From: a virus
Virus record (IMG/VR): IMGVR_UViG_3300011116_001123
Span: 1-64,000 of that record
Strand: one strand, 5' to 3'
Length of the DNA: 64,000 nucleotides
This document shows, one piece after another, positions 8,795 through 60,224 of the stretch. The translations under genes and the position numbers were made by a program. Under the pieces are notes generated by a model, which searched no databases, had not been told where the DNA came from, and saw nothing but the letters and a program-made list of their open reading frames with translations. Numbering within the stretch: position 1 is the first letter of the stretch; every line of letters starts with the position of its first letter.

Positions 8795-9292
8795 TTATTC
8801 TCCTTTTATCATTCCCAAGCTGTGTTTCAAAAATTCTTTTGCTCTTTGAGAAACATTGGACAAGGCATAAACTTTTTCGATGTCCTTTACAAGTTCCTCA
8901 CCGTGTTCGTTTTCTTTGTACAACTCGATAATTTTATCCATCGCTTTATTACATTGATTTTTGGTTTCATCAAAATAGTTGTAGGGTTTGAATGCTTTCA
9001 AATGATTCATGATGTTATATGCAACATGCTCTCCACCATCAGTAATATTAGGGTGAATTCTCAAAGTCTTTAATAATTCAATTCTATCAGTAAGGGCTCC
9101 TACACCATTTTTTCGAAGTTGTACTCCCTCGATATAGTCTTCAAGTTCGTCAGATCCAACAATGTCTTCAAGGGTCTTAACGTTTCCACCATGACAGAAT
9201 TTTCTATCACCTTTTTCTTCTGATTGCTCAATCATGTATAATTTTTTGATTGACTGTTTTTCTTCTTCTGTAAGTACAAATCTTTTGCTCAT
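8795..9292 (-). CDS. Tagged protein (style C), body of unknown function
   Basis: 165 residues from the ATG at 9292, chosen because the box TATTTATC (plus 9296-9303) sits just upstream. The tag reads MSKRFVLTEEEKQSIKKLY, then MIEQSE; LTE and MIEQ are candidate protease sites. The body is helical and charged (AFKPYNYFDETKNQC; ELVKDIEKVY). No enzyme motif recognised. Predicted head cargo by the tag. Confidence 0.7.
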   Translation of the reverse strand: MSKRFVLTEEEKQSIKKLYMIEQSEEKGDRKFCHGGNVKTLEDIVGSDELEDYIEGVQLRKNGVGALTDRIELLKTLRIHPNITDGGEHVAYNIMNHLKAFKPYNYFDETKNQCNKAMDKIIELYKENEHGEELVKDIEKVYALSNVSQRAKEFLKHSLGMIKGE

Positions 9293-9295
9293 ACC

Positions 9296-9303
9296 GATAA
9301 ATA
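9296..9303 (-). promoter_or_regulatory. Late-type box TATTTATC
   Basis: Minus-strand box 3 bases before the ATG at 9292; a separate plus-strand box at 9329 serves the divergent gene. Confidence 0.5.
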
Positions 9304-9328
9304 TATCAATCATTGTAAATTACTAATC

Positions 9329-9336
9329 TATTTATC
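9329..9336 (+). promoter_or_regulatory. Late-type box TATTTATC
   Basis: Lies 12 bases before the ATG at 9349. Confidence 0.5.
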
Positions 9337-9348
9337 CATAAAAAACAC

Positions 9349-9996
9349 ATGAAAAGAATTTTATACTTTATATCAGTAATTTTATTATCCCTATTATTTG
9401 CGAGTTCAACTCAGCTACAAGATGAGGTGGTTCTAAAACACACAAATTACACTTCAACATTTAGCATCTCAAAAAAATATCCCGTGATTGTTGAGTGGTG
9501 GGTTACAAAGGCAAAGGTAAGTTGTCCAACACCTTTAAAAAGAAAAGATAATTTCAAACCAGATCCATTATTACCACAACACACAGACATTGCGAAGGAT
9601 TATGTAGGTAGTGGATATGATAGAGGACATATGATGCCAGCGGCAGACAATTTATGTCAGACTCAACAGATTCAAGACGAAAGTTTTTATTTTTCTAACA
9701 TGGCGGCTCAAACACATAGGTTAAATGCTGGAGATTGGAAATCATTGGAAACATTTACTCGGGACGAATCTAAGTTGAAGGATTCAATCCATGTTTGGGC
9801 GGGTAATGTTGGGGAAGTAAAAAAAATAGGAAGTGTGTCCGTCCCAAAATATTGTTGGAAAGTTATTCACATTAAAAAGGAAAATAAGTGGGTAGCGTAC
9901 TTGTTTGAAAACAATACGTCAGCTCCTGATGGATTCAAAAACAACGAAGTCGCCCTTAAGGACATTATGTCCTTAACTGGTTTTACATTTCGCTAA
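9349..9996 (+). CDS. Secreted DNA/RNA non-specific endonuclease (NUC1/EndoG family)
   Basis: 215 residues. An N-terminal signal peptide (MKRILYFISVILLSLLFASS) is followed by the catalytic motif DRGHMMPAAD at about residues 94-103, with the general-base His, then FYFSNMAAQTHRLNAGDW carrying the metal-binding Asn. These match the beta-beta-alpha-metal NUC family. Exported by signal peptide, it would degrade periplasmic or extracellular DNA, for example DNA of competing phages or debris. The plus-strand gene sits between minus-strand genes and has its own late-type box. Confidence 0.92.
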   Translation: MKRILYFISVILLSLLFASSTQLQDEVVLKHTNYTSTFSISKKYPVIVEWWVTKAKVSCPTPLKRKDNFKPDPLLPQHTDIAKDYVGSGYDRGHMMPAADNLCQTQQIQDESFYFSNMAAQTHRLNAGDWKSLETFTRDESKLKDSIHVWAGNVGEVKKIGSVSVPKYCWKVIHIKKENKWVAYLFENNTSAPDGFKNNEVALKDIMSLTGFTFR

Positions 9997-10484: not shown

Positions 10485-10766
10485 TTACTTTTCGTATTTG
10501 ATTTCGGTATGTGCTTTCTTAATTCCGTCAAGACCTTTATAAATCAAATCCTTAACTTCAGGACGAGTTTTCTTTCCTCCCTTAAACATTGATATTAATT
10601 CTTCCAAACTATCAATTACTTCTTCACTTGCATCGATTACATCCAAATTACCATTATCAGTGTCTGTTTGCATGGGTTGTGTATATATGTCCAAGTCCAT
10701 GGCAACACTATTTGACCCTGTTTCAACTAATTTTTTATATTGACTTTCACTAATAATGACTTTCAT
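10485..10766 (-). CDS. Tagged protein (style A), acidic body
   Basis: 93 residues. The tag is MKVIISESQYKKLVETG, with ISE-S as candidate cleavage site. The body is acidic and helical (VIDASEEVIDSLEELISM), ending in a basic stretch. No enzyme motif. Start supported by the palindromic late box at 10781. Confidence 0.7.
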   Translation of the reverse strand: MKVIISESQYKKLVETGSNSVAMDLDIYTQPMQTDTDNGNLDVIDASEEVIDSLEELISMFKGGKKTRPEVKDLIYKGLDGIKKAHTEIKYEK

Positions 10767-12348: not shown

Positions 12349-12744
12349 TTAAGGAAACTCTGCGTTGAGTTTATCAACACTCGAGGTACATTCACATTGG
12401 GTTATGTTGAATACTTTATTCCCATCAGTTCTTTTGGCATACCAATCATTTTCAATCTTTATGTATCTCCATCTTGTATCACCTGGATATTGTTTGAGAT
12501 TAGCCTCATCTTCGAATTTCTGAGTTATGTTTGTATCAGTTACTGGTGGACATGGTTTTACTCTACATCCACTTGAGGAAGTCGTTGTTGCCTCAGATGG
12601 GTATGAGCCTATATTATTGGCCTCAAAAAAAGATGCACTCACTTCACCTTCAGTTTCAGTTGCAGTACTTTGCTCTAACATCAACTTTTTGTGTAAGTTA
12701 ATTATTCTAACTTTTTCTTCTTCGGATACTATAAACTTTTTCAT
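12349..12744 (-). CDS. Tagged protein (style C), Cys/Ser/Thr-rich body
   Basis: 131 residues. Tag MKKFIVSEEEKVRIINLH, then LMLEQ as candidate cleavage site. The body has a Ser/Thr/Glu linker and four cysteines (CRVKPC; CEC), followed by a Trp/Tyr-containing stretch (WRYIKIENDWYAKR) similar in flavour to the module of the 12744 protein. Its start abuts the stop of the 12744 gene, so the two are one unit. Confidence 0.7.
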   Translation of the reverse strand: MKKFIVSEEEKVRIINLHKKLMLEQSTATETEGEVSASFFEANNIGSYPSEATTTSSSGCRVKPCPPVTDTNITQKFEDEANLKQYPGDTRWRYIKIENDWYAKRTDGNKVFNITQCECTSSVDKLNAEFP

Positions 12745-13446: not shown

Positions 13447-15180
13447 TTATTGTCGATTTCTACCAGATTGTTGATTTCTACCAGGTCTAGCCGGAGGTGG
13501 TGTTGGTCCTTGTCTTGGTGTAGTGTCTACTCCTTGTACATCAGTTGGTGTTAGTACTCTCGTTAAAGAATCAAGTCTTTGTCGATCGAGTTGATTAGCT
13601 CTCATTGCGGAATCCAACCTTGCCTGACTCACATCTGCTAAAGAATCTAATTCTCGTTGATATCGTACCGCTTCAGCTCCAGCGTTTTGAGCCGCCTCGA
13701 TTGACAAATCTCGTATACCTCCTTGCGTGACCCAATAATCCGTTTCATCAATCAATTTTTGCCAAATATTTGTAAATGGGTTCAATGCTTTAAGTACATC
13801 CACCACGGGGATTGGTAATTCTTTCCCGTGTATTTTAATAAATTCATCAGTATATATACCCATCGCTTTCTTGAATTCTTCGAACATGAAATATTTTACT
13901 GCTTCGGTGGTCTCTTCAAACGGTATTTCTTGAGTGATAAGACTATTTTTAATGTATTCCCATAACCCGAAGAAAACTGGCCAAACAATTTTAGCAACTC
14001 CTTGGAAATATAAATATAAGTACCAAGCCCCTTTTGGTACTCCATATCTTAGTAAGAAACTTTTATAAATTGCCGAAATGTTAGTTGCATATCCTATAGT
14101 TATTCCTGAAAATATTCTTTGTAAGAGTTTTGCCCAGCCTGTAGTAATTCCTACTAATTTATCCTTTGTCATATTAACAAAAGGAACCCATTGGAAAGCA
14201 TCACTTATTTCTTGGATTAACTGATTATCATCTAACACACTCTTGAAATATGATTCAGCATTCTTGCCAAGTGCCTCATTTGCTTTTAGAGCTTGAACTA
14301 TGTCCAACCCTTTATCTGTACCTGTAGCCTTATTTACTTCACGTTGAATTAAATTATAAATTTCTTGTTTAACTAAATCTTCGTTTTTCCTAAGTGCTTC
14401 GATTTCTGTATCAATTAATCGATATAATTCTGCTGGTGATTCTGCTTCATTTATCAATTTATCAGCAGCTTCTTTGAGATAACCCACAATTCTCTCCATA
14501 CTTTGAGCCCTTTGACCCTTGAACCTATTCAATAGATTGGTAATAGTGTATTTCAACTTAGCTCTAAATCCTCTGAACGCGCCGAGTCCCATGAGTTTTT
14601 TATCCACAATACTCAAAACACCTGGTGCAATTTCATCCCATTTTTTGAAAGTATCTCGTAAATCTTTCATCAGTTTATCGTCTGGAACATTTTTGGGTGG
14701 TGGGGTGATTGGATTCCTTGGTACTCCATCCAAAACATCTTTGATTTGTTTCTTAATAATTTTGTCTATTCCAGGCCATTGCTCGAAAAGACCCTCGAGG
14801 GCTCGCAACTGACTATCAATTATTTCATCATCTATTCTTAGATTATTTTTTTTGAAATCCGTTAGACGGTTTGTTACAGCTGTAATCTCGGCTTGATAAC
14901 TATCATCCAAAACCCCAAATATTCTTGGAATAATCTCGTCGGCAAACCTTTTTTCCAAGGTTACTAATTCGGATAAAACCTCAACTGCTTCCACATCAGT
15001 TTTTGCGTTTCGTAAACGTAAAAATTCATCAGAGTGCTTTGCGAAAAGTTCCGCCAATTCATCACCCAAACTCAAAAGTACGTCGGCAATCGCTTTGTAT
15101 CGAGATTCAGTAAGTAATTGAACTTCCATTAAAACTCTCATTCTTGAGATTTCTTCATTTAACGTTTTTCTATTTTTCAT
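13447..15180 (-). CDS. Large tagged protein (style D-like), helical, with hydrophobic segments
   Basis: 577 residues. Tag TLNEEISRMRVLMEVQLLTES, where LNE and LTE-S are candidate protease sites. Residues 40-320 are long charged helices (coiled-coil type). About residues 355-420 contain hydrophobic stretches (LLQRIFSGITIGYATNISAI; YLYLYFQGVAKIVWPVFFGLW). The end is Arg/Pro/Gln-rich. Length and mixed helices suggest an ejected protein able to reach or cross the cell membrane; no catalytic motif recognised. Overlaps the next gene by 11 bases. Confidence 0.75.
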   Translation of the reverse strand: MKNRKTLNEEISRMRVLMEVQLLTESRYKAIADVLLSLGDELAELFAKHSDEFLRLRNAKTDVEAVEVLSELVTLEKRFADEIIPRIFGVLDDSYQAEITAVTNRLTDFKKNNLRIDDEIIDSQLRALEGLFEQWPGIDKIIKKQIKDVLDGVPRNPITPPPKNVPDDKLMKDLRDTFKKWDEIAPGVLSIVDKKLMGLGAFRGFRAKLKYTITNLLNRFKGQRAQSMERIVGYLKEAADKLINEAESPAELYRLIDTEIEALRKNEDLVKQEIYNLIQREVNKATGTDKGLDIVQALKANEALGKNAESYFKSVLDDNQLIQEISDAFQWVPFVNMTKDKLVGITTGWAKLLQRIFSGITIGYATNISAIYKSFLLRYGVPKGAWYLYLYFQGVAKIVWPVFFGLWEYIKNSLITQEIPFEETTEAVKYFMFEEFKKAMGIYTDEFIKIHGKELPIPVVDVLKALNPFTNIWQKLIDETDYWVTQGGIRDLSIEAAQNAGAEAVRYQRELDSLADVSQARLDSAMRANQLDRQRLDSLTRVLTPTDVQGVDTTPRQGPTPPPARPGRNQQSGRNRQ

Positions 15181-16465
15181 TTCCTTGTTTTTTTTCGTCA
15201 GATTTCATTTTTAATAGTTCCAACGTTTTGGAATCAACTATACCAGTTTCTTCCAATTCATTATTCCATTGAAACAATATAACTGCGTCAAAAGTATTAT
15301 TACCGAAATCTCCATCGACACCTTTTTTCTCTGTATTATATCCTTTCAAAGTCAATCCATACTCCAAACTATCCAACATCTCTTGTACTTTTCTTACAGA
15401 TTCTCCTTTTTGTCCGAATTCAATAACATATGGTTTTTTTGTTTTTGGGTCAATTTTTCCTGCCAACACATCCTGAATCGGTGGTGATATCATTTGATTT
15501 TCAGATTTTATCTTTTCCTCTAATCCTCTCATGGTTTCCTGATGTTCTTGTTCCAGTCGTGCTGACTCTGTGCAATCAACTTGTTTTAATAAATTAGGAT
15601 TATCCTTGAACATTTGTTCGTGTTTCTTAAAATAGTCTCCTACTTCTTTTACAATACGTTCTTTAATCTTGGGATCTTTGAGAAACTGTACCAATTGATA
15701 AAAAGATGAATCCTGACGTAGTTTCATTTTTTCTTCATCGGTTCCATAAAGGGCTAAATAAACTTCATCATATGTGTAGTAAATCCCTCCAATTGTAAAA
15801 CCGAGCTTACCAAGACTCCAACTCATTTTTGTCAACAATAACACTGTCCCAAATAATAATTTACCACCAGTTTGTAGTATATTCGCAACGACTTGAGTGA
15901 CGAAATATTTTTGTGTCAGATTTGCAATTTTCTGAGAATGTTGGGTAAGTTCTGACATTAATTCATCGGCTTGTTTTACTATTGCCTTTTCTGCGTCGGT
16001 CAATGTTTTCCTTTTAGCAAGTTCCCTACCCTTTTTGATGGTATCAAGGACCTGTTTTTTTCCTCTAGCCATGCTTCTTGAAACTCTTGGGCTCATGAGA
16101 GCAAATTCTGATGCAGGAATCAAACAAAAAGATAAAACCAATCCCGCCATGTAGTCGTCATCTTCATATAAATAAAGCCCTCCATCAGCAAGACACGCTG
16201 CGGTTGAAACTCCCAAAAGAACTCCAGATGCTGGTGATGGAATTAATCCTAAGAGACCTGCTGCAACGTCGACAAAAGTCAACCAATCATGTGCATCCCA
16301 TGTTCTCATCCACTGTGGTGTTTTCGTGACTAACAATCCACCTGGAGAGAGCCCCCAGGCGCTTATGTTATTAAGTCCGATTTGCTCGTTGAGAACATTA
16401 ACTCCCATCAAACTTTGAATTCGTTCTATTTCAGATTCATAAAGATATTTACCTCCTTGGTTCAC
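15170..16465 (-). CDS. Tagged membrane-active protein with C-terminal peptidoglycan-binding domain
   Basis: 431 residues from a GTG at 16465, preferred over the ATG at 16504 because the late box TATTTATA (plus 16482-16489) lies between them and the tag then aligns with its relatives (YLYESEIERIQSLMG, then VLNEQ). Hydrophobic, Gly-rich segments lie at about residues 55-110 (VDVAAGLLGLIPSPASGVLLG) and 170-210. The last 80 residues are a peptidoglycan-binding domain (GESVRKVQEML; DGDFGNNTFDAVILFQ). Together with the 13447 gene it looks like ejected cargo for envelope passage. Confidence 0.75.
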   Translation of the reverse strand: MNQGGKYLYESEIERIQSLMGVNVLNEQIGLNNISAWGLSPGGLLVTKTPQWMRTWDAHDWLTFVDVAAGLLGLIPSPASGVLLGVSTAACLADGGLYLYEDDDYMAGLVLSFCLIPASEFALMSPRVSRSMARGKKQVLDTIKKGRELAKRKTLTDAEKAIVKQADELMSELTQHSQKIANLTQKYFVTQVVANILQTGGKLLFGTVLLLTKMSWSLGKLGFTIGGIYYTYDEVYLALYGTDEEKMKLRQDSSFYQLVQFLKDPKIKERIVKEVGDYFKKHEQMFKDNPNLLKQVDCTESARLEQEHQETMRGLEEKIKSENQMISPPIQDVLAGKIDPKTKKPYVIEFGQKGESVRKVQEMLDSLEYGLTLKGYNTEKKGVDGDFGNNTFDAVILFQWNNELEETGIVDSKTLELLKMKSDEKKQGNEK

Positions 16466-16481
16466 AATTAAATCTTTTTTA

Positions 16482-16489
16482 TATAAATA
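16482..16489 (-). promoter_or_regulatory. Late-type box TATTTATA that decides the 16465 GTG start
   Basis: The box lies 16 bases upstream of GTG 16465 but downstream of ATG 16504. Confidence 0.5.
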
Positions 16490-16514
16490 TATTGGTAATA
16501 TCAATTATTTTGTA

Positions 16515-16797: not shown

Positions 16798-19245
16798 TTA
16801 TTCCTTCAAATGATTAAACCTGAAGACAATGTTTTCCTCTTCAGGTTTATCTGAAAACAACGGACCCAAATATTCTCTGAAGTTGTTTCTCAACTTCATC
16901 TCGATTTGTTTTTCAACCTTTTCGGGAGTAAGGTTTGGTATTTCACCTTTCAAATAGTTTTCCGGTGTTGGAACTTGTTTTCCGTCTATCACTTTCAAAA
17001 CGTCTTGAATATCCACGTTTACGACGTTCTTGTCGTCAATGTCTTCAACGGAAGAAATTTTGAACTTGATACTAATTTTCGGTTCCGCACCATAAGACGG
17101 AGATTTTGCGGTTGAAACTTTTTGAGATACTAATGAAGGTGCCATATCTCTAAATGCCTTTCGTTTAAGTTCCATAACTTTCTCATGAGTAACACCTCTC
17201 TCAATCATTTCCATTTCCTGACGAGACAATAGATAAACTTGGGACTCTAAGGTGTCGTTCCATCTATATGGTCGAGACGCATTCATTTGCTTCCCTGTGG
17301 AGGAAGAATATCTATCTGAGGTTTCATACCACTTACCGTCTTTGTAGATATAAACTGGATACCACCCATAAGACTCGACAATATATATCTTTCCATCCAT
17401 TGTTGCTCTCCAATATCCTCTTAGGTTTGAACCCTTAAATGGAAGTTGTGCTTTGGTATAAACCTTGGCATTATAATTTGGAGTACGTTTCCCTTTCATC
17501 TTTCTCGGATCGGTAAAGTTGTCCTTTGTCAATGATGAATAATCACCATCTTGTCGATAGTTCAAAAGATATAATTCCAAAATATATGGTGCAAAATCGG
17601 GATCGATTCCGAAATAAGGTAAATAATCCTTGATTGCTGTTTGTAAGTCTCTTTTGTTGTTGTAATTACTTTTTTGGGTATTAAGAATTTTGAATAGCTT
17701 GACAATCACCTTATTCGGTTCAATATCAATGTTGACCGCCTCATTCATCATATCATCACCACAAGCGGTAAGATAATATTCCATCAAATCATCACCATAC
17801 CAATTTTGGGCCAAGGGGAAAATTATATCGATAAATTTTTCATAACTACCCTCGGGAAAATAATCTTCATTGACAGTGAAAAAATGGTCAATCGCCATAG
17901 CGATAATGTTACCGGAATATTCGTATTCATCGGCATAGTCTCCACAAAGATCTGGAAATTCCTCCTGTGTCTCAAGAATATATTTCATGAAGGATTCCTT
18001 ATTAACCCTTCGTTTCAATCTATCCATAAAGTCAGACTCAGACAATAATTCATGCTGTGATTCAACAATTCTTTGAAGTTGTAATTCTGTCAAAATGTAA
18101 TCTTTTTTCATTTTCGATTCCGTAACTTGTATAGGTATTGTGGGTAAATCTGGATTATTCCAACCTAATTTTGGATAATTTGTACTTAAATATATATCAT
18201 CCATCGGATTTTTAGACAGAGCTTTTTCAAGTTCAGATGCAATATTTTTTTGGTCATTGAAACTAATTCTTATAAGTTTTATTCCATTCTCCTTACAGAA
18301 TTTGTTTTTCGCCAAATCGTTCAATACCCTTTCTTTGTATCCCTCCAAACCTCTGTACCTACCCTCTACAGGAAAAAAATGTTGTCTCCCATCGAATTCT
18401 GCGATTACAACGGTTCCATCTTCTTTAACGAAATAAGCGTCCGATTTTAATTTATTTCGATTTCCACTTCCTTTAAAACTGTACGCCCCTAATTTTTTTT
18501 CTGTATCGACCGTATATCCTGAAACTTTTAGTGTGTCCACCATAGTGTATTCTCCCTTCCACTTGATATTTCTTTCCTTGTTGCACACAGGACAAGCAAA
18601 TTTTAAGTGGTTATCAAAGTATGCTACGGTACCCTTAGGATAAAGATTTACTGGTGTCTCGTGATTAGTACATTTGAAATTTTTTACAAAGAGTCTAGTT
18701 TGATTCGATCCTTCACTTCTCGGAACTAAATAAAAATTTTCTTTTTCGAAACTTAGCGTTGTATCTTGAGGAACCGTACTCATAAACTTTTCTATCTTGG
18801 AATCAAGATCTTGTGGATACATTTGATTAAGCCATTCAGAATAACATTTTTTACATGAGTTTTGTTTTAATTGTTCCAATCTGATTTCACCAACCTCTCC
18901 ATGAACTACTCCTTCTGAATCTGTTTTTTCACATATTACTCCATCGATGGTTTTGTGATGCCTCTCATCTTTACCATACGTAACATTATCAAAGTTAAAA
19001 TCAGGAAATAATTCTTTAAGCTTTTCAGTAGTCTGTTTGTTGTCCTTATCTTTTAATTCGGACAACATATTTTGCATGGTAAGAGTTTGGTCACCAGTAC
19101 GATTTCTTCTATTACTAATCCATACTGCTATATCATTGTATTCGGGACTTTCATAAAAATCCTTCAATGTATTGAATTGAGAAATATATTCTTTAACTGA
19201 ATCTATATCCCATTTTGATTCTCTACCTTCCGAAATTACTTCCAT
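16798..19245 (-). CDS. Large fusion: nuclease-like half plus an internally tagged second half
   Basis: 815 residues from ATG 19245, preferred over ATG 19251 because the box TATTTATG (plus 19249-19256) ends next to it; the N-terminus MEVISEGRE is itself tag-like. Residues about 120-235 have CxxC pairs (CKKC; CPVC) of zinc-ribbon or treble-clef type. About residues 265-345 read as a PD-(D/E)XK/Vsr-like nuclease: VVIAEFDGRQHFFP, then NDLAKNKFCKENGIKLIRISF. At residue 379 a second tag begins, MKKDYILTELQLQRIVES, then LLSES. The C-terminal 430 residues are of unknown function (WRATMDGKIYIVESYGWYPV). It may be two fused genes, or one polyprotein cut by the head protease. Confidence 0.7.
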   Translation of the reverse strand: MEVISEGRESKWDIDSVKEYISQFNTLKDFYESPEYNDIAVWISNRRNRTGDQTLTMQNMLSELKDKDNKQTTEKLKELFPDFNFDNVTYGKDERHHKTIDGVICEKTDSEGVVHGEVGEIRLEQLKQNSCKKCYSEWLNQMYPQDLDSKIEKFMSTVPQDTTLSFEKENFYLVPRSEGSNQTRLFVKNFKCTNHETPVNLYPKGTVAYFDNHLKFACPVCNKERNIKWKGEYTMVDTLKVSGYTVDTEKKLGAYSFKGSGNRNKLKSDAYFVKEDGTVVIAEFDGRQHFFPVEGRYRGLEGYKERVLNDLAKNKFCKENGIKLIRISFNDQKNIASELEKALSKNPMDDIYLSTNYPKLGWNNPDLPTIPIQVTESKMKKDYILTELQLQRIVESQHELLSESDFMDRLKRRVNKESFMKYILETQEEFPDLCGDYADEYEYSGNIIAMAIDHFFTVNEDYFPEGSYEKFIDIIFPLAQNWYGDDLMEYYLTACGDDMMNEAVNIDIEPNKVIVKLFKILNTQKSNYNNKRDLQTAIKDYLPYFGIDPDFAPYILELYLLNYRQDGDYSSLTKDNFTDPRKMKGKRTPNYNAKVYTKAQLPFKGSNLRGYWRATMDGKIYIVESYGWYPVYIYKDGKWYETSDRYSSSTGKQMNASRPYRWNDTLESQVYLLSRQEMEMIERGVTHEKVMELKRKAFRDMAPSLVSQKVSTAKSPSYGAEPKISIKFKISSVEDIDDKNVVNVDIQDVLKVIDGKQVPTPENYLKGEIPNLTPEKVEKQIEMKLRNNFREYLGPLFSDKPEEENIVFRFNHLKE

Positions 19246-19317
19246 ACTCATAAATACCCAATAAAAACGAAATCCCTATGATTATAAAATAGAATTGTCA
19301 TATTGGAAAAAAAACAA

Positions 19318-21956: not shown

Positions 21957-22259
21957 TTAAAAAAGACCTAAATCGGAAACTTCTACTCCCGTTAAATCAT
22001 ATACGAGTCTTCTGACTACTTTTCCAGCTTCCTTATCACTCAGTAAAAATAAGTCCATAATAGAACTGAAAATTCTTTCATCGATGTTGAAGTAATACGC
22101 ATTCATTTCAGGTGAATAAACTAGCACCGCGGTTTCTCGTCCATTCTTTTCGAAAATCTCCAATGTTGGAATTTCGGAATTTTTCAATTCCCCTAATTCG
22201 TTGAGTAAGTATTTTGTTGCGATTGTCTCTAATCTTGACTTATTTATCTCATATTTCAT
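21957..22259 (-). CDS. Tagged small protein of the ~100-residue paralog family
   Basis: 100 residues. MKYEINKSRLETIATKYL is a degenerate style A tag (K instead of E before S). The end follows the family pattern: MDLFLLSDKEAGKVVRRLVYDLTG. Overlaps the next paralog by 11 bases. Function unknown. Confidence 0.7.
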   Translation of the reverse strand: MKYEINKSRLETIATKYLLNELGELKNSEIPTLEIFEKNGRETAVLVYSPEMNAYYFNIDERIFSSIMDLFLLSDKEAGKVVRRLVYDLTGVEVSDLGLF

Positions 22260-22587
22260 CTAAATCTATATGGTTAAAGGTTCCGAAATGCATTACTTTT
22301 GGTGGTTCGATACCAAGGTAGTTTGAAAACCATTTTCTGATTGATTCCTTTTTTTCTTCATAATCAAGTGAAAACATATTTACTAACGGGTCTGAAATTT
22401 TTGCCCTATCGAAGAATACTCTGTCTTCAGATTCATTACTCATAAACACTATTTCTCCATTTTTGGTGGCAAAAACCCATTGTTTGTAATTTTTTTTACC
22501 TGGAACCCAAACTAAATCATTATATGCATCATTCAAAAAATATGCCCCCAAGTCAATCAGTCTCGATTCTGTGATTATTACCTTCAT
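22249..22587 (-). CDS. Tagged small protein of the ~100-residue paralog family
   Basis: 112 residues. Tag MKVIITESRLIDLGAYFL with ITE-S. Body: two beta-type stretches (YKQWVFATKNGEIVFM) and the family ending MFSLDYEEKKESIRKWFSNYLG. A TATTTATT box precedes it. Function unknown. Confidence 0.75.
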   Translation of the reverse strand: MKVIITESRLIDLGAYFLNDAYNDLVWVPGKKNYKQWVFATKNGEIVFMSNESEDRVFFDRAKISDPLVNMFSLDYEEKKESIRKWFSNYLGIEPPKVMHFGTFNHIDLDEI

Positions 22588-24948: not shown

Positions 24949-25500
24949 TTATGGAGTCGGATAATCCACTTTCGGAACAGGTAGATTTCCTGCGCCGGTA
25001 GTACAGAAAGTTTGTTTCAATTCTTTGGTTAAGGAAGGTGCGAAAACACTAACGTAAAAATTTGAAAGAATTATACCCAACTTGTCAGAACTACAATTGA
25101 AATATGCTTTAGATCCAAATCTATCGAGATCGAAAACCACATCATTATTTCCAGTAACGTCAGAGTATGCTTTTTGAATTTTGAAAGTTCCATATAAATT
25201 ACCAATCTCATCAGGTTTGTTTTTTCCGCTAATTACAGAATATGTGTTGAATTGTTTACCCACATATTTTTCCAAAAGATCTGGATTATTGAACGGATTT
25301 GTTGTCGTGTCTCCACTAGTAGTCCCACTAGTTGGGTTTGGAAGAGTTGGATTTGACATTGGTGGAGTAGTCTTGGTTTTCACACCAGGATTTTCACCAG
25401 TTTGTACAACAGTGGTTTGAGTTTGTTCACTCATCAGTCGTTTCTCCAATCTTTGGTTGGCTTCTTGAATATGTCTGATTTTACTATAACTTCTATTCAT
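24949..25500 (-). CDS. Tagged protein (Ser-Glu-Gln end), Pro/Thr-rich linker
   Basis: 183 residues. Helical tag IRHIQEANQRLEKRLMSEQ. A 60-residue Thr/Pro/Gly/Asn linker follows, then a compact domain (KYVGKQFNTYSVIS; VFDLDRFGSKAYFNC). Two cysteines. No family recognised. Confidence 0.7.
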   Translation of the reverse strand: MNRSYSKIRHIQEANQRLEKRLMSEQTQTTVVQTGENPGVKTKTTPPMSNPTLPNPTSGTTSGDTTTNPFNNPDLLEKYVGKQFNTYSVISGKNKPDEIGNLYGTFKIQKAYSDVTGNNDVVFDLDRFGSKAYFNCSSDKLGIILSNFYVSVFAPSLTKELKQTFCTTGAGNLPVPKVDYPTP

Positions 25501-25584: not shown

Positions 25585-25992
25585 TTATGCTTGAGGTTGT
25601 TGAGGTGCTTGAGCCTTTGCAATCGCATTTGCCAAAGCATCAAGTGGTCCCAATACATTGGAAATTGCCGGTAAATATGGTTTGAACGAATTTGTATTTT
25701 GATATTGAGCAATAGCCTTTTTAATAGTATCAGGAAGATTACCAAGTTGTCTTCTGATTTTCAAAATATCATAAATTGCATTTATTTCATTTTGTTGAGC
25801 CTGATAAGTCTCTCTGTTCGTGGTTCTCAAATCTTTTCTTGCATCTCTTCTTGCGTCCTTTGCATCTCGAACCCCTGCTCTAGCAGCATCAAGTCCTTGT
25901 TGTGCCGCCAGTTGTTGACTAGTTTGTTCTTGTATTGCCCTTTTAACTAATTTTGCTAAATCAGCTTCGGTCATTCTTATAATTTTTCCCAT
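25585..25992 (-). CDS. Tagged protein (style B), helical, Ala/Gln/Arg-rich
   Basis: 135 residues. Tag MGKIIRMTEADLAKLVKR, then AIQEQ. The body is a long helix (QQGLDAARAGVRDAKDARRD; RETYQAQQNEINAIYDI) and an Ala/Gln/Pro tail. It could be a DNA-binding or core-filling head protein. A late-type box lies upstream. Confidence 0.75.
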   Translation of the reverse strand: MGKIIRMTEADLAKLVKRAIQEQTSQQLAAQQGLDAARAGVRDAKDARRDARKDLRTTNRETYQAQQNEINAIYDILKIRRQLGNLPDTIKKAIAQYQNTNSFKPYLPAISNVLGPLDALANAIAKAQAPQQPQA

Positions 25993-35829: not shown

Positions 35830-35850
35830 AACTTATTCCTTGAAGGGGGA

Positions 35851-37528: not shown

Positions 37529-37557
37529 TAAAAAACCCCTCGTTAATGGGAGGGGTT
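37529..37557 (-). terminator. Intrinsic terminator after the 37543 gene (overlaps its 3' end)
   Basis: AACCCCTC/GAGGGGTT 8-bp stem with T-run; the second arm includes the stop region of the 37543 gene. Confidence 0.7.
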
Positions 37558-42088: not shown

Positions 42089-42400
42089 ATGAAATATATT
42101 ATACCTGAAAAAAGAATAGAAAGGTTGGCGAATAAGTACTTAAGTTCTTTAGGGTTAACAGAAGGAAATTATGATGAGGATGGGTTTGATATAATACAAG
42201 GTGTTAATCATATGCTGGCGTACCGTAGTGAAGAAGAGAAATTATACATGAACATTTACTTAATCAAAGACCTCCGAGACCTTTTTGATTTGACCCAAAG
42301 AGAAAGTATGACCTATATCAAAAATTGGTTTCAGGACGCATATGAAACAGATGTGAAGTCAGTATGGTTGTTGTTTCCTGATGAACCATTCACCTATTAA
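42089..42400 (+). CDS. Tagged small protein of the ~100-residue paralog family
   Basis: 103 residues. Tag MKYIIPEKRIERLANKYL (IPE-K). Ends FDLTQRESMTYIKNWFQDAYE, the family pattern. Overlaps the convergent SGNH gene by 11 bases. Function unknown. Confidence 0.7.
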   Translation: MKYIIPEKRIERLANKYLSSLGLTEGNYDEDGFDIIQGVNHMLAYRSEEEKLYMNIYLIKDLRDLFDLTQRESMTYIKNWFQDAYETDVKSVWLLFPDEPFTY

Positions 42401-43121: not shown

Positions 43122-43169
43122 GTATTCTATTCATCTGCCGTGTGTAAGCAACCACATGCCAATAAATCT

Positions 43170-44096: not shown

Positions 44097-44103
44097 TGTG
44101 TAT

Positions 44104-46335: not shown

Positions 46336-46629
46336 ATGAAATACATTATCTCCGAGGGTCGACTTGATAACATCATGAAAAAGTATTTGGATTCATTTTT
46401 AACCTCCAAACAAATCTTGGATTATGATGATAGTTTGGTAATCGCGGATCCGAATGCTGATGATGATAATCCACATTGGACTGAATATATGTTCTATAAC
46501 TATGACGATGAGGACTTATGGGTGAACAATCAATTTATTGAAGAATTCGGCTATTTGTTTAATAAGGATTATGAAGAATCTCTTGCTTTTATAAAAGATT
46601 GGTTTAAGAAAGAATTCAACCTGAATTAA
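46336..46629 (+). CDS. Tagged small protein of the ~100-residue paralog family, tandem copy 1
   Basis: 97 residues. Tag MKYIISEGRLDNIMKKYL (ISE-G). Acidic middle (DPNADDDNPHWTEYMFYN) and family ending YEESLAFIKDWFKKEF. Two bases before copy 2; the tags differ by one residue over the first 20. Confidence 0.8.
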   Translation: MKYIISEGRLDNIMKKYLDSFLTSKQILDYDDSLVIADPNADDDNPHWTEYMFYNYDDEDLWVNNQFIEEFGYLFNKDYEESLAFIKDWFKKEFNLN

Positions 46630-46631
46630 AA

Positions 46632-46916
46632 ATGAAATATATTATCTCCGAGGGCCGACTTGATGACATAATGAAAAAGTATTTGGATTCTTTCTTATTA
46701 AATAAGGATGTAATCGATAATCAAGCGGGTATCGCCGTTTATGATGATGAGGAGAATTATTTAGAATACTTCCCAAGAAAAAGAGAACTATTCATATTGG
46801 GCGAATTCTTGGATGAGTTCGAGACTATGTTCGGTCTTACTCGAAATGAAGCAATTAAATTCATTCGGAATTGGTTCGAGAATGAATTCTATGTGAAGGT
46901 TCAAATGGCTGGATAA
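46632..46916 (+). CDS. Tagged small protein of the ~100-residue paralog family, tandem copy 2
   Basis: 94 residues. Tag MKYIISEGRLDDIMKKYL. Ends MFGLTRNEAIKFIRNWFENEF. The bodies have diverged much more than the tags, as if only the tag is under strong constraint. Confidence 0.8.
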   Translation: MKYIISEGRLDDIMKKYLDSFLLNKDVIDNQAGIAVYDDEENYLEYFPRKRELFILGEFLDEFETMFGLTRNEAIKFIRNWFENEFYVKVQMAG

Positions 46917-46923: not shown

Positions 46924-47265
46924 CTATCCCTTATATTTTGTAGTACTTCGGTAATATAACTTTTCAAACTTATCTAACAATTCCTTATTAGCATAGATTA
47001 AATTACGAAGTCCGTCTTCTAATTCATGCATTTGCGGAACATGAGTATCAGCATAATCCGTAGGTATTACACTTATAACCCCTGAGTATATCGCTCTATC
47101 TAAGTATGTATTGAAATCAGGCATAAATGATGGCACGTACCAATCTGCTGCTTGAATGACTGCGGCGATAAGTTCGGGCATTCTTCTTTTAAGATATGGA
47201 TTTACGGATCCTTCGTTAATCCCCATCACTTCTTTGATTCTATCAATGTCCTCCTGTAAATTCAT
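46924..47265 (-). CDS. Tagged protein (style D), single-module member of a tandem array
   Basis: 113 residues. Tag MNLQEDIDRIKEVMGINEG (INE-G). Body module: NPYLKRRMPELIAAVIQAADW and FNTYLDRAIYSGVISVI. Modules of this type also occur in the 47980 and 48329 genes. Follows the 47267 gene by 1 base. Confidence 0.75.
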   Translation of the reverse strand: MNLQEDIDRIKEVMGINEGSVNPYLKRRMPELIAAVIQAADWYVPSFMPDFNTYLDRAIYSGVISVIPTDYADTHVPQMHELEDGLRNLIYANKELLDKFEKLYYRSTTKYKG

Positions 47266-47266: not shown

Positions 47267-47983
47267 TTAAATCAAACCTTTGTTTACCATCTCTTTAACC
47301 ACAGTCAATTGTTCAGGACTTGGAGTATCCAACCATGAAATTGCAGTGTCGAAAACTTCACTCAACTCAGGTGTTAATAATTTTTTTTCTTGTAATATAA
47401 TTTTAACTTCTATCAACTGTTCTTTCAACTTTCCGACTTGTTGTACAAGAACTTCGACACCTTGAGTTTTCATAAGTTTTGTTATGAAAATCCAAAAAGA
47501 CCATTTGAATTCTCGTTTATCAAACAAAATTCTGTAGTTAATTATTCCTTTTTGTATTGCCCATCTTTGTATTGAATCGGGGGTCATTCGCAATAGGTTT
47601 TTAATCCCCTGCTTGACTCCTACCGATGCAATATTTCCTCCAACAGGATAAAGTCCAAATAATGCCGTTACTAAACCTAAAATAATGAATTCTGTTCTTT
47701 GAAGTCCTGATGTCATGGCAGCTCTTACAAAGTAGGATAAAGCATGAATTTCATCTATTACAAATGAAATAAGATTACCAAAACCTGGTACTACATCTAT
47801 AGCCGCAGAAATAGCATCAACCATAAAATCTGCTCCCATGGGTTTTTTTGAATCGATTGCTCGCTTAGATTGACCGAAATTTTCAGGTGGTGCAAATTTT
47901 GGAGCAAGTGTCTTACCTTTCAATTCAAGAGACGTTTGCTCCATCACTTCTTTGATTCTATCTATATCTTCTTGTAAGTTCAT
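47267..47983 (-). CDS. Tagged protein (style D) with hydrophobic helices
   Basis: 238 residues. Tag MNLQEDIDRIKEVMEQTSL, where VMEQ replaces GINE. Residues about 50-115 are hydrophobic (FMVDAISAAIDVVPGFGNLI; IILGLVTALFGLYPVGGNI), similar in tone to the hydrophobic part of the 15170 protein (LGLIPSPASGVLLG). The rest is helical. A membrane-inserting cargo is plausible. Confidence 0.75.
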   Translation of the reverse strand: MNLQEDIDRIKEVMEQTSLELKGKTLAPKFAPPENFGQSKRAIDSKKPMGADFMVDAISAAIDVVPGFGNLISFVIDEIHALSYFVRAAMTSGLQRTEFIILGLVTALFGLYPVGGNIASVGVKQGIKNLLRMTPDSIQRWAIQKGIINYRILFDKREFKWSFWIFITKLMKTQGVEVLVQQVGKLKEQLIEVKIILQEKKLLTPELSEVFDTAISWLDTPSPEQLTVVKEMVNKGLI

Positions 47984-48324
47984 TCCAAATCAAGTTTACT
48001 TATGAAGATTTGTTTTAGTGTCTGAAGTAGTTCTTTATCTTGAGTAATCGTCTTTAACAATATCTTCTCGATTTCTTCTAATTCTTCATGTGTCAAATCA
48101 TAATTTTCAATGACATTTCTTATTGAATAAAATATTGTCCTATCCAAGAAATTCTTAAAATAATTCTCATCGAATTCTCTGTCACTTCTAACAAATATTT
48201 CGTTAGCGGTATCAACAACTGCATTAAGAAACTCAGGAAGTCTCCTTCTTAAATAAGGATTAAGAAAACCTTCATTAATCCCCATAACCTCCTTAATTCT
48301 ATCTATGTCTTCTTGTAAATTCAT
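47980..48324 (-). CDS. Tagged protein (style D), single-module member of the tandem array
   Basis: 114 residues from ATG 48324, the codon that gives the intact tag MNLQEDIDRIKEVMGINEG; the ATG at 48363 adds residues outside the tag. Module NPYLRRRLPEFLNAVVDTAN and YFKNFLDRTIFYSIRNVI. Overlaps the 47267 gene by 4 bases. Confidence 0.75.
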   Translation of the reverse strand: MNLQEDIDRIKEVMGINEGFLNPYLRRRLPEFLNAVVDTANEIFVRSDREFDENYFKNFLDRTIFYSIRNVIENYDLTHEELEEIEKILLKTITQDKELLQTLKQIFISKLDLE

Positions 48325-48328: not shown

Positions 48329-48946
48329 TTATATGTTGGAGATATAGTGATCGTAAATCTCATCGTATATCGAATGTTTCTTTACTAACTCCATTATCAT
48401 TGGCTCTAACTCTTCACTTATTTTTAACTGTTCTTCGAATTCTCCACCTATTTCATCGGCAACGAAATCTCTTGTTGCTGAGAATATAACCCTTTCTAAA
48501 AAATCATCAAAGTTTTTGAATCTCCGTGGTGATAACCAGTCATATGAAGCTTCAATATAATCAAGTAAAGCATCCATTCTTCTTTTAACACGTATAATTT
48601 CCTTGGACTCATTGATTGATGAATCTTCACTTGAATAGTAATGATGTTTAATTTTTTTTAACAACCATTCATCATTTTGTAATATTCGAAGAGCAATTGG
48701 GAGTAACTCTTCCATTTCATCATTCTTGATAAGAATATTATTATAATCAAAAAACCCATCTATTGCATGCATTAAAACATACTGAAGATATTCTTCAAAA
48801 CTATCCCCTTCTTCTACTTCTATCCACTCGAAAGAATGAAGGATGGTATCAATAAATTCCTTTTGTCTTCTCCTGAAGAACATATCACGGCTTTCGTTAA
48901 TACCCATGACTTCCTTAATCCTATTTATGTCTTCATGCAAATTCAT
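48329..48946 (-). CDS. Tagged protein (style D), two modules with an internal INE-S site
   Basis: 205 residues. Tag MNLHEDINRIKEVMGINES, first module (RRRQKEFIDTILHSFEWI; FEEYLQYVLMHAIDGFF), then a second copy beginning SINESKEIIRVKRRMDALLD with FDDFLERVIFSATRDFV. The second module is preceded by another INE-S, as if the head protease could release two products. Late box TATTTATC at plus 48950-48957. Confidence 0.75.
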   Translation of the reverse strand: MNLHEDINRIKEVMGINESRDMFFRRRQKEFIDTILHSFEWIEVEEGDSFEEYLQYVLMHAIDGFFDYNNILIKNDEMEELLPIALRILQNDEWLLKKIKHHYYSSEDSSINESKEIIRVKRRMDALLDYIEASYDWLSPRRFKNFDDFLERVIFSATRDFVADEIGGEFEEQLKISEELEPMIMELVKKHSIYDEIYDHYISNI

Positions 48947-51071: not shown

Positions 51072-51500
51072 TTATTTCTTTTTCTTAACACAGTTTGGAT
51101 ATCTTTTACCAAACATAGTTTTCATTCCTTTCTGAGTATAACCTTTCCAACATCTTTCCGTTAGTTCACCTTCGAATAAATCTGTAGTATCCTCATCACA
51201 GTTACGAACAAATGCCGAACGCATCCGAGGTGAAATCTCGAAATAATTATTTACAGTAGTGTAAACTTCATCCATTATATCTCTCGCTAAGTCACGTGTA
51301 AGGTGATTATGACTGACTTTGAAAATAACTGAAACCCAATATCTTGGATAATTTACGTTTTCAGTGGAACCCTCGACTTCAATTTTACAAATGTCTTCAG
51401 GATATTTGGAAACTATAGTTCTATCAACAAGCCTCTGTATTAAACGAGTATAATCAACGTTTCGTTCTTCTCTTAAAATTCTTCGGATAAGATCTCTCAT
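51072..51500 (-). CDS. Tagged (short style B-like) protein, alpha/beta body
   Basis: 142 residues. MRDLIRRILREERN carries an LRE-E site. The helix-strand layout (LIQRLVDRTIVSKYPEDICK; YWVSVIFKV) recalls the 8125 and 38658 proteins. The C-terminal tail is basic (RYPNCVKKKK). Late-type box TATTTATA upstream of the ATG. Function unknown. Confidence 0.65.
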   Translation of the reverse strand: MRDLIRRILREERNVDYTRLIQRLVDRTIVSKYPEDICKIEVEGSTENVNYPRYWVSVIFKVSHNHLTRDLARDIMDEVYTTVNNYFEISPRMRSAFVRNCDEDTTDLFEGELTERCWKGYTQKGMKTMFGKRYPNCVKKKK

Positions 51501-58102: not shown

Positions 58103-58116
58103 TTTAACTTAATTTG

Positions 58117-58124
58117 TATTTATA
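58117..58124 (+). promoter_or_regulatory. Late-type box TATTTATA
   Basis: Three bases before the ATG at 58128; located in the divergent gap with the NUDIX gene. Confidence 0.45.
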
Positions 58125-58127
58125 ATT

Positions 58128-58475
58128 ATGGATGTTTCAATAAATAATCACAGATTCGAAGTTATTACTCTTTTGGACCCACGTTCCCAACAAATTGGAA
58201 TGATGGGTAAAAGATTTTCCCATATCAAACAAGGTATGTTATTTTTGATGGGAGGTAAAGAACAATGTTTTTGGATGAAAAACTGTATTGTACCTTTAGA
58301 CATTATTATAATAAAAAATAATGTCATTGTCAACATCCATCATGATTGTCCTCCTTGTCTTCAAGAGGATTGTCCAACTTATTGTGGTAACGGTAATATT
58401 GTATTGGAATTACGTGGTGGAGCTTGTCAAAAGTTGGATATCAAACCTGGAGACACAGTTAATTATCTGCTTTAG
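58128..58475 (+). CDS. DUF192-family protein
   Basis: 115 residues. GMMGKRFSHIKQGMLFLM, FWMKNCIVPLDIIII and LELRGGACQKLDIKPGDTV match the DUF192 family, small proteins often secreted or linked to envelope functions. No signal peptide here. Extra cysteines (CPPCLQEDCPTYC) could bind metal. Its 3' end overlaps the DHH gene by 17 bases. Confidence 0.8.
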   Translation: MDVSINNHRFEVITLLDPRSQQIGMMGKRFSHIKQGMLFLMGGKEQCFWMKNCIVPLDIIIIKNNVIVNIHHDCPPCLQEDCPTYCGNGNIVLELRGGACQKLDIKPGDTVNYLL

Positions 58476-59865
58476 ATTGTTCAATTTTTTCTTTTAAAAC
58501 TTTTTGAAATTGATTTGCAATCATCTTCGTGAACTTAACCGATGGACTATCTTCCGATTCAGGGTTGTATCTGTAGTTACCTTGAGGTGGTCTTGTACTT
58601 CTTCCTAAGTAGTTTAATCCTGATATGTTTGTGATACACTTATGTCCACCAGAGTTTGATTGAATCAAGTCCCAAGCATTAACACCTATTTTATCCAAAA
58701 TTTTCATTTCATCTTCAGTCAAACTATTGAAAGGTTTTTCCATCAAAGATTGGATTTTATCCATAACTTTTTCACCACCATCTATGACCGTTATTTTGTC
58801 TCCATACAATGCTTTAAAATCTTTGAAGGTAAATCCAATACTTTCAGGACCGACACTTGTTTCACTTACCCACTTTATCGTTGATAATGGAACAGTTTTT
58901 TGTTTTAACTGTTCTTCCCATTTTCCGAGTACTTCTTGAGCAATTTCACCCAAATTCACACCTTTGAGTTGTCTGTCAAGTTTGAATGGATTACATGATG
59001 CTTGAACCAAACCCATCGGCCATACCATAATTAAAAAATCAGCCTCAGGATTGTTCTTATATGGAGTATATCTATCGTAAGAACCTGGCTTGAACATGCT
59101 TCCTCCACCATATTGGAAAATAATATTATCCGTTACAGTCGGAAATGATTTCATCTTCTCTGTATAATCTTCAGCATTTTTCTGAAGTTCTTCAGCTGAA
59201 GGTGCTCCAACCGACTTCATCCAAGATTTAATATTATTCAAGATAGACATCAGAGATGGTTGTGAATCCATAACTAACATCTCTAAGAAACCAGGTTTGT
59301 TCTTAAAGGCTAATAATAGTTTATTAATTACTAATCCCAATAACATCTTATTACCTTGAAGAGAAGTTTCTCTATCTAATCGGAACAAATAATTTACCAC
59401 ATCCTCTGGACTTAAGTTTTGTCTTGCAAAATCTGCTGAGTCAACTGTGTTAATTAACAATATATCAGATGATGGGAATAGGTCTCTTGGTGAAACGACC
59501 TGTGAAATAGTTGCAACATTAGACCGAGATTGTCGAAATGACGTAGATTTTGTATCTTCAGCACCCGCTTGTCTATCATGATGATCCGTATGAATAACAA
59601 ACATTGGTTTACCATGCGCAAAGTCAACAAGTACGGGCATTGTATCTCCCATTGCGTCATTCTTTTTTACCGCAAATTCTTTGTCACCATATTGAATTAC
59701 ATGGGCATCGACAACATCGATACCGTTATCCTCAAGGTATTTTTTCATTGCAATTGCGGTGGTTACACCATCTAAATCCTGATGGAAGTAGATTTCAGCT
59801 TTTGGATATCTTTTACTTAATCCTTTTATATCCCTAATACCACCCTCTTTTATTATTTTTTTCAT
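58459..59865 (-). CDS. Tagged DHH-family phosphoesterase
   Basis: 468 residues. A short style A tag, MKKIIKEGGIRDI (IKE-G), precedes DHH motifs: FHQDLDGVTTAIAM, VDFAHGKP and HTDHHDRQ. A helical middle is followed by a DHHA1-like end with GGHKCITNISGL. The family includes RecJ exonucleases and oligoribonucleases/c-di-NMP phosphodiesterases; which one is not clear. If ejected it could degrade nucleic acids or signal nucleotides, for example those of CBASS-like defences. Overlaps the 59862 gene by 4 bases. Confidence 0.8.
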   Translation of the reverse strand: MKKIIKEGGIRDIKGLSKRYPKAEIYFHQDLDGVTTAIAMKKYLEDNGIDVVDAHVIQYGDKEFAVKKNDAMGDTMPVLVDFAHGKPMFVIHTDHHDRQAGAEDTKSTSFRQSRSNVATISQVVSPRDLFPSSDILLINTVDSADFARQNLSPEDVVNYLFRLDRETSLQGNKMLLGLVINKLLLAFKNKPGFLEMLVMDSQPSLMSILNNIKSWMKSVGAPSAEELQKNAEDYTEKMKSFPTVTDNIIFQYGGGSMFKPGSYDRYTPYKNNPEADFLIMVWPMGLVQASCNPFKLDRQLKGVNLGEIAQEVLGKWEEQLKQKTVPLSTIKWVSETSVGPESIGFTFKDFKALYGDKITVIDGGEKVMDKIQSLMEKPFNSLTEDEMKILDKIGVNAWDLIQSNSGGHKCITNISGLNYLGRSTRPPQGNYRYNPESEDSPSVKFTKMIANQFQKVLKEKIEQSKADN

Positions 59866-60224
59866 TGAAACTGTTTTTTAACCCACTCGAGAAAATTTCC
59901 CCAATAATCTTCGTGTACACCATATTCGTTGGCAACTATGTTTTTCAACATAATTTTGTCTTTCTCAGGCATTTTCGCGTAAGTTTTGTCTCCAAATTGA
60001 CCATCTGTAGGATATACTCCAATCATTTCTTGATATTTAGCAATCGCTTTCTCAGTCTCTGAATTTCGTCCAGTTCTACCATCCACTACTAAACCAGCAT
60101 TCATTCTTTTATTCAGAAAAGCCTGAATTCTATAAATGTGCTCTCGGTGATACATTTGTTCGTTAATCACTCTTTTAACTACTCTTGTCAAGTCGGACTC
60201 CGTCAATTTAATTATTTTTGCCAT
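59862..60224 (-). CDS. Tagged peptidoglycan-binding protein (style B)
   Basis: 120 residues. Tag MAKIIKLTESDLTRVVKR, then VINEQ. Residues about 30-90 look like a divergent peptidoglycan-binding type 1 domain (RIQAFLNKR; VDGRTGRNSETEKAIAKYQ; TDGQFGDKTYAKM). Ends with a helix (NFLEWVKKQFQ). Confidence 0.7.
   Translation of the reverse strand: MAKIIKLTESDLTRVVKRVINEQMYHREHIYRIQAFLNKRMNAGLVVDGRTGRNSETEKAIAKYQEMIGVYPTDGQFGDKTYAKMPEKDKIMLKNIVANEYGVHEDYWGNFLEWVKKQFQ

What the first reader, a model, noticed from the sequence alone, without database searches (positions are those of the whole stretch)
8795..60224. About thirty unrelated proteins share T4-like head-targeting tags: a packaged effector arsenal
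Seen: short N-terminal tags of four related styles precede unrelated bodies in about thirty genes (for example 10485, 13447, 15170, 22249, 25585, 26610, 27928, 29321, 29924, 32010, 34144, 35536, 36222, 37543, 42089, 46336, 48329, 58459, 59862). Most end in [IL]-x-E followed by Q, S, G, A or E. Known: T4 internal proteins carry a short N-terminal capsid-targeting sequence cut by the prohead protease after [IL]-x-E. Inference: this phage packs a large set of cargo proteins into its head and ejects them with DNA. The bodies include a lysozyme, peptidoglycan binders, a metallopeptidase, a caspase-like protein, nucleases and a DHH phosphoesterase. The number and chemical variety go far beyond T4 and suggest a general delivery system in a Bacteroidota phage.
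Basis: partly seen in the sequence, partly recalled or inferred. Interest (0 to 1): 0.95.

Follow-up and report, generated by a model that had tools for sequence, protein, structure and literature searches.

The report
Phage head-cargo tags on many proteins
A large freshwater-type phage of Bacteroidota puts one of several short, probably cleavable address tags on more than twenty different proteins, which most likely loads them into its head for delivery into the next host; phage T4 does this with only a few proteins.

Summary
The window has about 31 genes with N-termini of four recurrent styles. About 23 have a plausible [ILV]xE cleavage site. Eight style-2 genes are one paralogous ~100-aa family, six of them with no site, and 46924/47980/48329 are a second paralog set. 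That leaves roughly 20 distinct tagged bodies.

A 142-kb contig that is 99.99% identical to the window over 39.5 kb carries the T4-like head module: S77 (gp21-type) prohead protease, gp23-type capsid protein, portal and terminase. The capsid protein keeps L-I-N-E|A in 80 of 80 relatives.

The tag is a separable module ending at the protease motif. The front half of the style-1 tag alone predicts [ILVM]xE 62/62 times (chance 8%). Identical tags sit on unrelated bodies, and homologous bodies carry different tags. Large relatives carry up to 38 tags; T4, immuto, RM378 and Mel-JY01 carry none of these styles.

Packaging, cleavage and ejection remain inferred; I found no virion proteomics for this phage group. 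The mechanism is the known T4 capsid-targeting principle, greatly expanded and with unrelated tag sequences. I found no earlier report in the papers searched.

The parts
8795..9292 (-). Tagged gene, style 4: MSKRFVLTEEEKQSIKKLYMIE|QSEEK; a homologous body in G016 has a different tag (MKKIVINEKELRKSIRQHLLE|QSQ)
   Evidence: HMM; swap
10485..10766 (-). Tagged gene, style 2: MKVIISESQYKKLVE|TGSN
12349..12744 (-). Tagged gene, style 4: MKKFIVSEEEKVRIINLHKKLMLE|QSTA
13447..15180 (-). Tagged gene, style 3: MKNRKTLNEEISRMRVLMEVQLLTE|SRYK, 577 aa, no known domain
15170..16504 (-). Tagged gene, style 3: YLYESEIERIQSLMGVNVLNE|QIGL; body ends in PG_binding_1; exact start codon uncertain
   Evidence: (Pfam E=1.8e-12)
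16798..19251 (-). 817-aa protein with a short possible tag (MSMEVISE|GRES), an HNH/homing-type nuclease N-part, and a second internal style-2 tag (MKKDYILTELQLQRIVE|SQHELLSE|SD); part of the second half is a separate tagged protein in G016
24949..25500 (-). Tagged gene, style 3 variant: MNRSYSKIRHIQEANQRLEKRLMSE|QTQT
25585..25992 (-). Tagged gene, style 1: MGKIIRMTEADLAKLVKRAIQE|QTSQ
26610..27917 (-). Tagged gene, style 4: MIKQTWQISDEERKRILSLHESATKNLYLMSE|QISV; shares only residues 1-33 (tag plus Q) with G002 135472, an OmpA-type protein
27928..28947 (-). Tagged gene, style 3: MKKSLTEELHRMHSMMYGSQIVE|QEFI; phage lysozyme plus PG_binding_1
   Evidence: Pfam E=8e-11
29321..29851 (-). Tagged gene, style 1: MKKIIRLTEADLTRLVRRVIKE|QGAI
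29924..31153 (-). Tagged gene, style 2: MRNFIISEGQLNHLLE|VIQT; weak Holliday-resolvase-type nuclease match at the C-terminus
   Evidence: E=0.0018, below cut-off
32010..33191 (-). Tagged gene, style 2: MEIRITKNQFNFLKE|QTRR; caspase-like reading rests on motifs only
34144..35388 (-). Tagged gene, style 2: MNILITESQYNRVVLNE|QSED; HEIQH motif
36222..36635 (-). Tagged gene, style 4: MKHLLNDLSEQEKNSIREQHTGGMKVMTE|SFSK
37543..37881 (-). Tagged gene, style 1: MKKIVRLTESDLENIVKMVINE|NDKP
46924..47265 (-). Tagged gene, style 3: MNLQEDIDRIKEVMGINE|GSVN (paralog family B)
47267..47983 (-). Tagged gene, style 3: MNLQEDIDRIKEVME|QTSL
47980..48324 (-). Tagged gene, style 3: MNLQEDIDRIKEVMGINE|GFLN (paralog family B)
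48329..48946 (-). Tagged gene, style 3: MNLHEDINRIKEVMGINE|SRDM; two family-B units with an internal SINE|SK
51072..51500 (-). Short tag: MRDLIRRILRE|ERNV; part of the body follows a style-1 tag in G020
58459..59865 (-). DHH-type protein with short tag MKKIIKE|GGIR; homologues MKKLIIE|SGIR (G016) and MKMVITESQYKRLLNE|SGIR (G020)
   Evidence: (E=1.8e-4, below cut-off)
59862..60224 (-). Tagged gene, style 1: MAKIIKLTESDLTRVVKRVINE|QMYH; weak peptidoglycan-binding match; homologous body has a style-4-like tag in G016
21957..22587 (-). Two family-A genes (21957-22259 and 22249-22587): style-2-like N-termini, related ~100-aa bodies, no cleavage site
35536..36168 (-). Two probable family-A genes (35536-35829 and 35851-36168), no site; assigned by N-terminus and size
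38203..38505 (-). Family-A gene; doubtful site (DLIE|E)
42089..42400 (+). Family-A gene; doubtful site (GLTE|G)
46336..46916 (+). Two family-A genes (46336-46629 and 46632-46916), no site

Best explanation
The N-terminal tags are capsid-targeting propeptides of a T4-type head system. During head assembly they should bind the prohead core, so that about 20 (window) to about 40 (large relatives) different late proteins are built into the prohead. The phage's S77 protease then cuts after [ILV]-x-E, freeing the cargo and removing the tag before DNA is packaged. The mature cargo leaves the head with the DNA and helps entry (lysozyme, M23 endopeptidase, peptidoglycan binders) and early takeover or counter-defence (nucleases, DHH protein, unknown bodies). 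Shown here: the tags, their N-terminal position, the conserved [ILV]xE end, modular swapping, the protease with a matching capsid-protein site, and a shared promoter-like motif. Inferred: core binding, cleavage, packaging, ejection and cargo function.
For: Tags are N-terminal and recur on unrelated bodies. The front half of style 1 predicts [ILVM]xE 62/62, chance 8%, P1' mostly Q; codons at identical residues are near random, so the constraint is on protein. S77 protease, gp23-type capsid protein, portal and terminase in the contig identical to the window. Capsid protein LINE|A in 80/80 relatives. Same tag on different bodies, ending at E|Q; same body behind different tags. TATTTAT motif before 16/26 tagged against 18/86 other genes, also before head genes. 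16/19 tag-bearing contigs >=90 kb carry S77 against 2/7 random ones. PA5oct homologue of tagged protein 70892 is annotated as detected by ESI-MS/MS and starts with a CTS-like peptide.
Against: No virion proteomics for this phage group. The tags are not recognisably similar to T4's CTS and are absent from T4, immuto, RM378 and Mel-JY01 although these have S77. Family A has style-2-like starts mostly without a site. Style-1 tags counted include many orthologues. In several swap pairs the alignment also runs into the tags. MS enrichment in PA5oct is only p=0.06. Tag-S77 co-occurrence is partly shared ancestry.
Confidence: 0.85

Rival explanations
1. The tagged proteins go into the prohead and are cut, but most act there as core or scaffold components or stay in the virion, rather than as ejected effectors.
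For: T4 IPIII affects head assembly (PMC9026906). The acidic 478-aa protein at record bases 76772-78208 has three tag-like segments, and a head-module protein carries KLTESQINILHSKLMVE|A.
Against: Bodies include a lysozyme, an M23 endopeptidase and nuclease-like proteins, which fit entry or takeover better than scaffolding; cargo sets differ between relatives.
Confidence: 0.2
2. The tags direct proteins to some other place or partner (tail or baseplate assembly, a membrane, a phage compartment) and the [IL]xE end is a by-product of helix composition.
For: Some bodies (lysozyme, peptidoglycan binders) are of kinds usually found in tails. No localisation data exist.
Against: The conserved tag ends at the motif of the phage's own prohead protease, body changes fall there, and the capsid protein has the same motif. 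The tags lack hydrophobic signal-peptide cores.
Confidence: 0.08
3. The shared N-termini are a translation-initiation or regulatory feature at the DNA/RNA level.
For: Tagged genes often share a promoter-like motif just upstream; the phage encodes its own bS21.
Against: At identical residues codons differ 0.40-0.43 of the time against 0.53-0.55 for random choice, so the constraint is mainly on protein sequence.
Confidence: 0.02
4. Family A (the ~100-aa style-2 paralogs) is an ordinary paralogous protein family whose first helix resembles the tag, not packaged cargo.
For: Most bodies are homologous to each other and six of eight have no site.
Against: Their N-termini score with the cleavable style-2 tags and 5 of 8 have the promoter-like motif. 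In T4, targeting can occur without processing (PMC9026906).
Confidence: 0.6

Closest known systems
T4 internal proteins IPI-III and Alt with capsid targeting sequence (CTS) and gp21 (S77) protease (PMC9026906)
   Same: Short N-terminal peptide shared by unrelated proteins, [IL]xE end, S77 protease beside gp23, gp20 and terminase
   Different: Tag sequences not recognisably related; several tag families per phage; 25-38 tagged N-termini in three of four large relatives instead of a handful; P1' mostly Q; tags 7-40 residues
Phage P1 DarB capsid targeting (PMC9024508)
   Same: N-terminal residues direct a protein into the head
   Different: P1 Dar proteins share no N-terminal consensus by BLAST
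phiKZ/SPN3US-type ejection proteins (PMC5694885, PMC10052503)
   Same: Many head proteins packaged and ejected, some cut by a prohead protease
   Different: Several propeptides there exceed 100 residues; here the tags are short, on many small unrelated bodies
bS21-encoding phages of freshwater Bacteroidetes (PMC9723584)
   Same: Probably the same phage group: bS21 on the reverse strand inside the TerL-portal-protease-MCP region, genomes up to 331 kb, predicted Bacteroidetes hosts
   Different: The passages of that paper seen here do not mention tags or a cargo set; it suggests proteomics to test for packaged bS21

Membership tests
T4-type capsid-targeting / internal head protein system | Short N-terminal peptide shared by otherwise unrelated proteins | tested here: met
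T4-type capsid-targeting / internal head protein system | Peptide ends in [IL]-x-E | tested here: met
   (62/62 style-1 tags); for the window; not met by most of family A
T4-type capsid-targeting / internal head protein system | Same phage encodes an S77 prohead protease with a T4-like head module | tested here: met
T4-type capsid-targeting / internal head protein system | Major capsid protein carries the same cleavage motif before its mature part | tested here: met
   LINE|A in 80/80 relatives; position near, not identical to, T4's; actual cleavage not testable
T4-type capsid-targeting / internal head protein system | Recognisable T4 CTS sequence (MKTYQEFI.E type) | tested here: not met
   The four tag HMMs have no hit in T4; so 'works like', not 'homologous tag'
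T4-type capsid-targeting / internal head protein system | gp22-type core/scaffold that the tags bind | tested here: inconclusive
   Acidic protein between MCP and protease at G002 138501 and G027 49993; no family match; binding not testable
T4-type capsid-targeting / internal head protein system | Late expression with head genes | tested here: inconclusive
   Shared TATTTAT upstream motif; no expression data
T4-type capsid-targeting / internal head protein system | Cargo present in virions without the tag, and ejected with DNA | not testable with these tools
   Needs virion mass spectrometry and infection assays
phiKZ/SPN3US-type ejection proteins | Long propeptides, several over 100 residues | tested here: not met
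   Tags are 7-40 residues; comparison from PMC5694885

The most novel reading that the evidence does not exclude
A general, modular head-cargo delivery system in T4-like large phages of Bacteroidota: several interchangeable tag families let any late gene become packaged cargo, giving each virion dozens of different ejected effectors that are gained, lost and re-tagged between phages.
Probability: 0.65. Interest if true: 0.9.

Novelty: new variant of a known kind. Interest (0 to 1): 0.8.

Why it matters
If true, virions of a widespread group of large phages carry dozens of ejected proteins, and the tag plus [IL]xE rule lets one list them from sequence alone. Many hypothetical genes of these phages would gain a predicted place (virion interior), time (start of infection) and mature N-terminus. 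It also suggests where to look for counter-defence proteins against Bacteroidota immunity, and makes an open question, what large phages carry in their heads, directly testable by proteomics.

Tried and rejected
S77 in the 88.9-kb window record alone: none, because the record lacks the head module. INPHARED DNA search: no match. tblastn with a 23-aa tag and a DNA back-translation of style 1: nothing, probably too short or too strict. Protease search of bacterial genome contigs: none. Tag styles in T4, immuto, RM378 and Mel-JY01: none, though immuto has its own recurrent N-termini. Virion proteomics of immuto: the Baltic phage paper read does not name immuto or report mass spectrometry. PA5oct enrichment: suggestive only, p=0.06, with a rule set after seeing examples. 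Gut-type tagged protein against phage isolates: no match. Cargo charge (T4 internal proteins are basic): no difference in pI. Faster divergence of tagged genes: p=0.10. Structure of 32010 without relatives: pLDDT 37, so no fold search was made. Explanation at codon level rejected.
Full report
What was checked. The window is bases 1-64,000 of an 88,930-base IMG/VR fragment. All cited genes exist. HMMs from window tags define four styles: 1, MKKIIRLTESDLTRLVKRVIKE|Q; 2, MKIIITESQYKxLLE|; 3, MNLQEDIDRIKEVMGINE|; 4...SEEEKxRIxxLH...LMSE|Q. Almost every hit is at a protein start, also in proteins not used as seeds. An alignment-score test without any HMM gives 30 similar N-terminal pairs, 24 of them with unrelated bodies, against 3-10 pairs for other segments.

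Corrections to the observation. Eight style-2 genes look like one ~100-aa paralogous family, two of them assigned only by N-terminus and size; six have no [ILV]xE site and two only doubtful ones. Three style-3 genes are also paralogs. About 23 genes with plausible sites and about 20 distinct bodies remain. Body functions with family support are the lysozyme, the peptidoglycan binders and an HNH/homing-type nuclease; the DHH and Hjc-type matches are below cut-offs; the caspase-like and metallopeptidase readings are unproven.

The protease. The window's own record contains no S77 protease. A relative found through a 446-aa tagged protein (G002, 326 kb, about 90% identical there) does, next to a gp23-type capsid protein, an acidic scaffold-like protein, portal and terminase. 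Contig G027 (142 kb) matches window bases 1-39,528 at 99.992% and carries the same module, with Peptidase_S77 E=3e-22, so the protease belongs to essentially the same phage. It aligns with the prohead core protein protease of PDB 5jbl. The capsid protein has LINE|A shortly before its conserved part in 80 of 80 relatives; T4 gp23 is cut 26 residues before the matching segment, here the site lies about 10 residues before it (the T4 motif itself is from general knowledge).

The tag is a module ending at the protease motif. An HMM of the first 16 residues of style 1 finds 63 distinct tags; in 62 of the 62 that could be read on, [ILVM]xE follows 5-8 residues later (chance 8%), with Q next in 46. 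Many are orthologues, so these are not 62 independent events. At identical residues codons differ 0.40-0.43 of the time against 0.53-0.55 at random, so conservation is mainly of protein. Same tag, different body: 26610 and G002 135472 share only residues 1-33, ending at MSE|Q. Same body, different tag: the DHH protein (MKKIIKE|GGIR, MKKLIIE|SGIR, MKMVITESQYKRLLNE|SGIR), two nearby G016 genes (...NFLVE|QTIPPVTSGTTP and ...KRILSE|QSTPPVTSGTTP, alignment starting at P3), the peptidoglycan binder 59862, and 8795. In many pairs the alignment also runs into the tags, so the G016 pair and 26610 are the cleanest cases. Part of the second half of 16798 is a separate tagged protein in G016.

Spread. Large relatives carry 35 (G002), 38 (G020), 25 (G016) and 10 (G022) tagged N-termini; two S77-negative control stretches had none. 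A style-2 DNA pattern found 74 stretches; 16 of 19 of their contigs of at least 90 kb encode S77, against 2 of 7 contigs of that size (3 of 9 including two of 71 kb) drawn with an unrelated pattern. This is partly shared ancestry. T4, RM378, Mel-JY01 and immuto have S77 but lack these tags; immuto has its own recurrent N-termini, one resembling style 3. The bS21 gene inside the head module places the phage with the freshwater Bacteroidetes phages of PMC9723584.

Regulation. TATTTAT is the commonest upstream 7-mer in G002. It precedes 23/36 tagged, 11/25 structural and 48/271 other genes there, and 16/26 tagged against 18/86 other genes in the window's record (p=1.8e-4); several tagged genes without it follow closely behind another gene. 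This fits late expression with head genes but is no expression measurement.

Indirect experimental hint. The only isolate matches to tagged protein 70892 are in PA5oct-like phages. The PA5oct protein is annotated 'ESI-MS/MS' and begins MKLFEVFTLYE|D. Across PA5oct, MS-detected proteins have CTS-like starts 13/93 against 23/318 (p=0.06): suggestive only, with a rule set after seeing examples.

Mechanism and novelty. The most likely mechanism is that of T4: the tag binds the core, the protease cuts after [IL]xE, and the cargo stays in the head and leaves with the DNA. In T4 ten residues suffice for targeting, and the review proposes that the CTS lets T4-like phages package varied proteins (PMC9026906). 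New here are the tag sequences, their number, several tag families per phage, and clear swapping. No paper in the searched library contains these tag strings, but sequences are rarely printed in papers, so this is weak evidence of novelty. Packaging, cleavage and ejection are not shown.

Noticed in passing
window 22600-23421, 42390-45962; many more in G002: A run of genes with FAGCSFTxG / FGCSFT / FGDSFS N-termini, perhaps an expanded SGNH/GDSL-like hydrolase family; untagged.
   Followed up: no
window 6914-7006 (-): ARAGORN calls a tRNA with anticodon TCA (tRNA-SeC), i.e. one that would read UGA.
   Followed up: no
record bases 76772-78208 (L001:16772-18208): Acidic 478-aa protein with tag-like segments at its N-terminus, in the middle (SLKLTEDELIDLIEQIVLE|QS) and near its C-terminus; possibly a core protein cut into pieces.
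   Followed up: partly
G002 134094-134789 and 237671; L029: Tag-like segments also occur at C-termini (for example NESLRDLIVKILKENIR), so targeting may not be only N-terminal.
   Followed up: no
L108/L114-L121 (Flavobacterium phage immuto): This isolate has its own recurrent N-termini on unrelated bodies and an S77 protease, which makes it a practical test case.
   Followed up: partly
G002 upstream regions, e.g. before 153315, 232764, 245330: Many cargo genes sit as terminator hairpin - TATTTAT - tag - body cassettes, which may ease exchange between phages.
   Followed up: partly
window 20471-21611: Adjacent nucleotidyltransferase-like and sugar-kinase-like genes that resemble the two halves of ADP-heptose synthesis (read by eye).
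   Followed up: no
G022: A more distant relative (279,749-base record) carries the MKKLIRLTESDLHRIIENSVKRVLKE variant of the style-1 tag, so the tag reaches beyond the close clade.
   Followed up: partly
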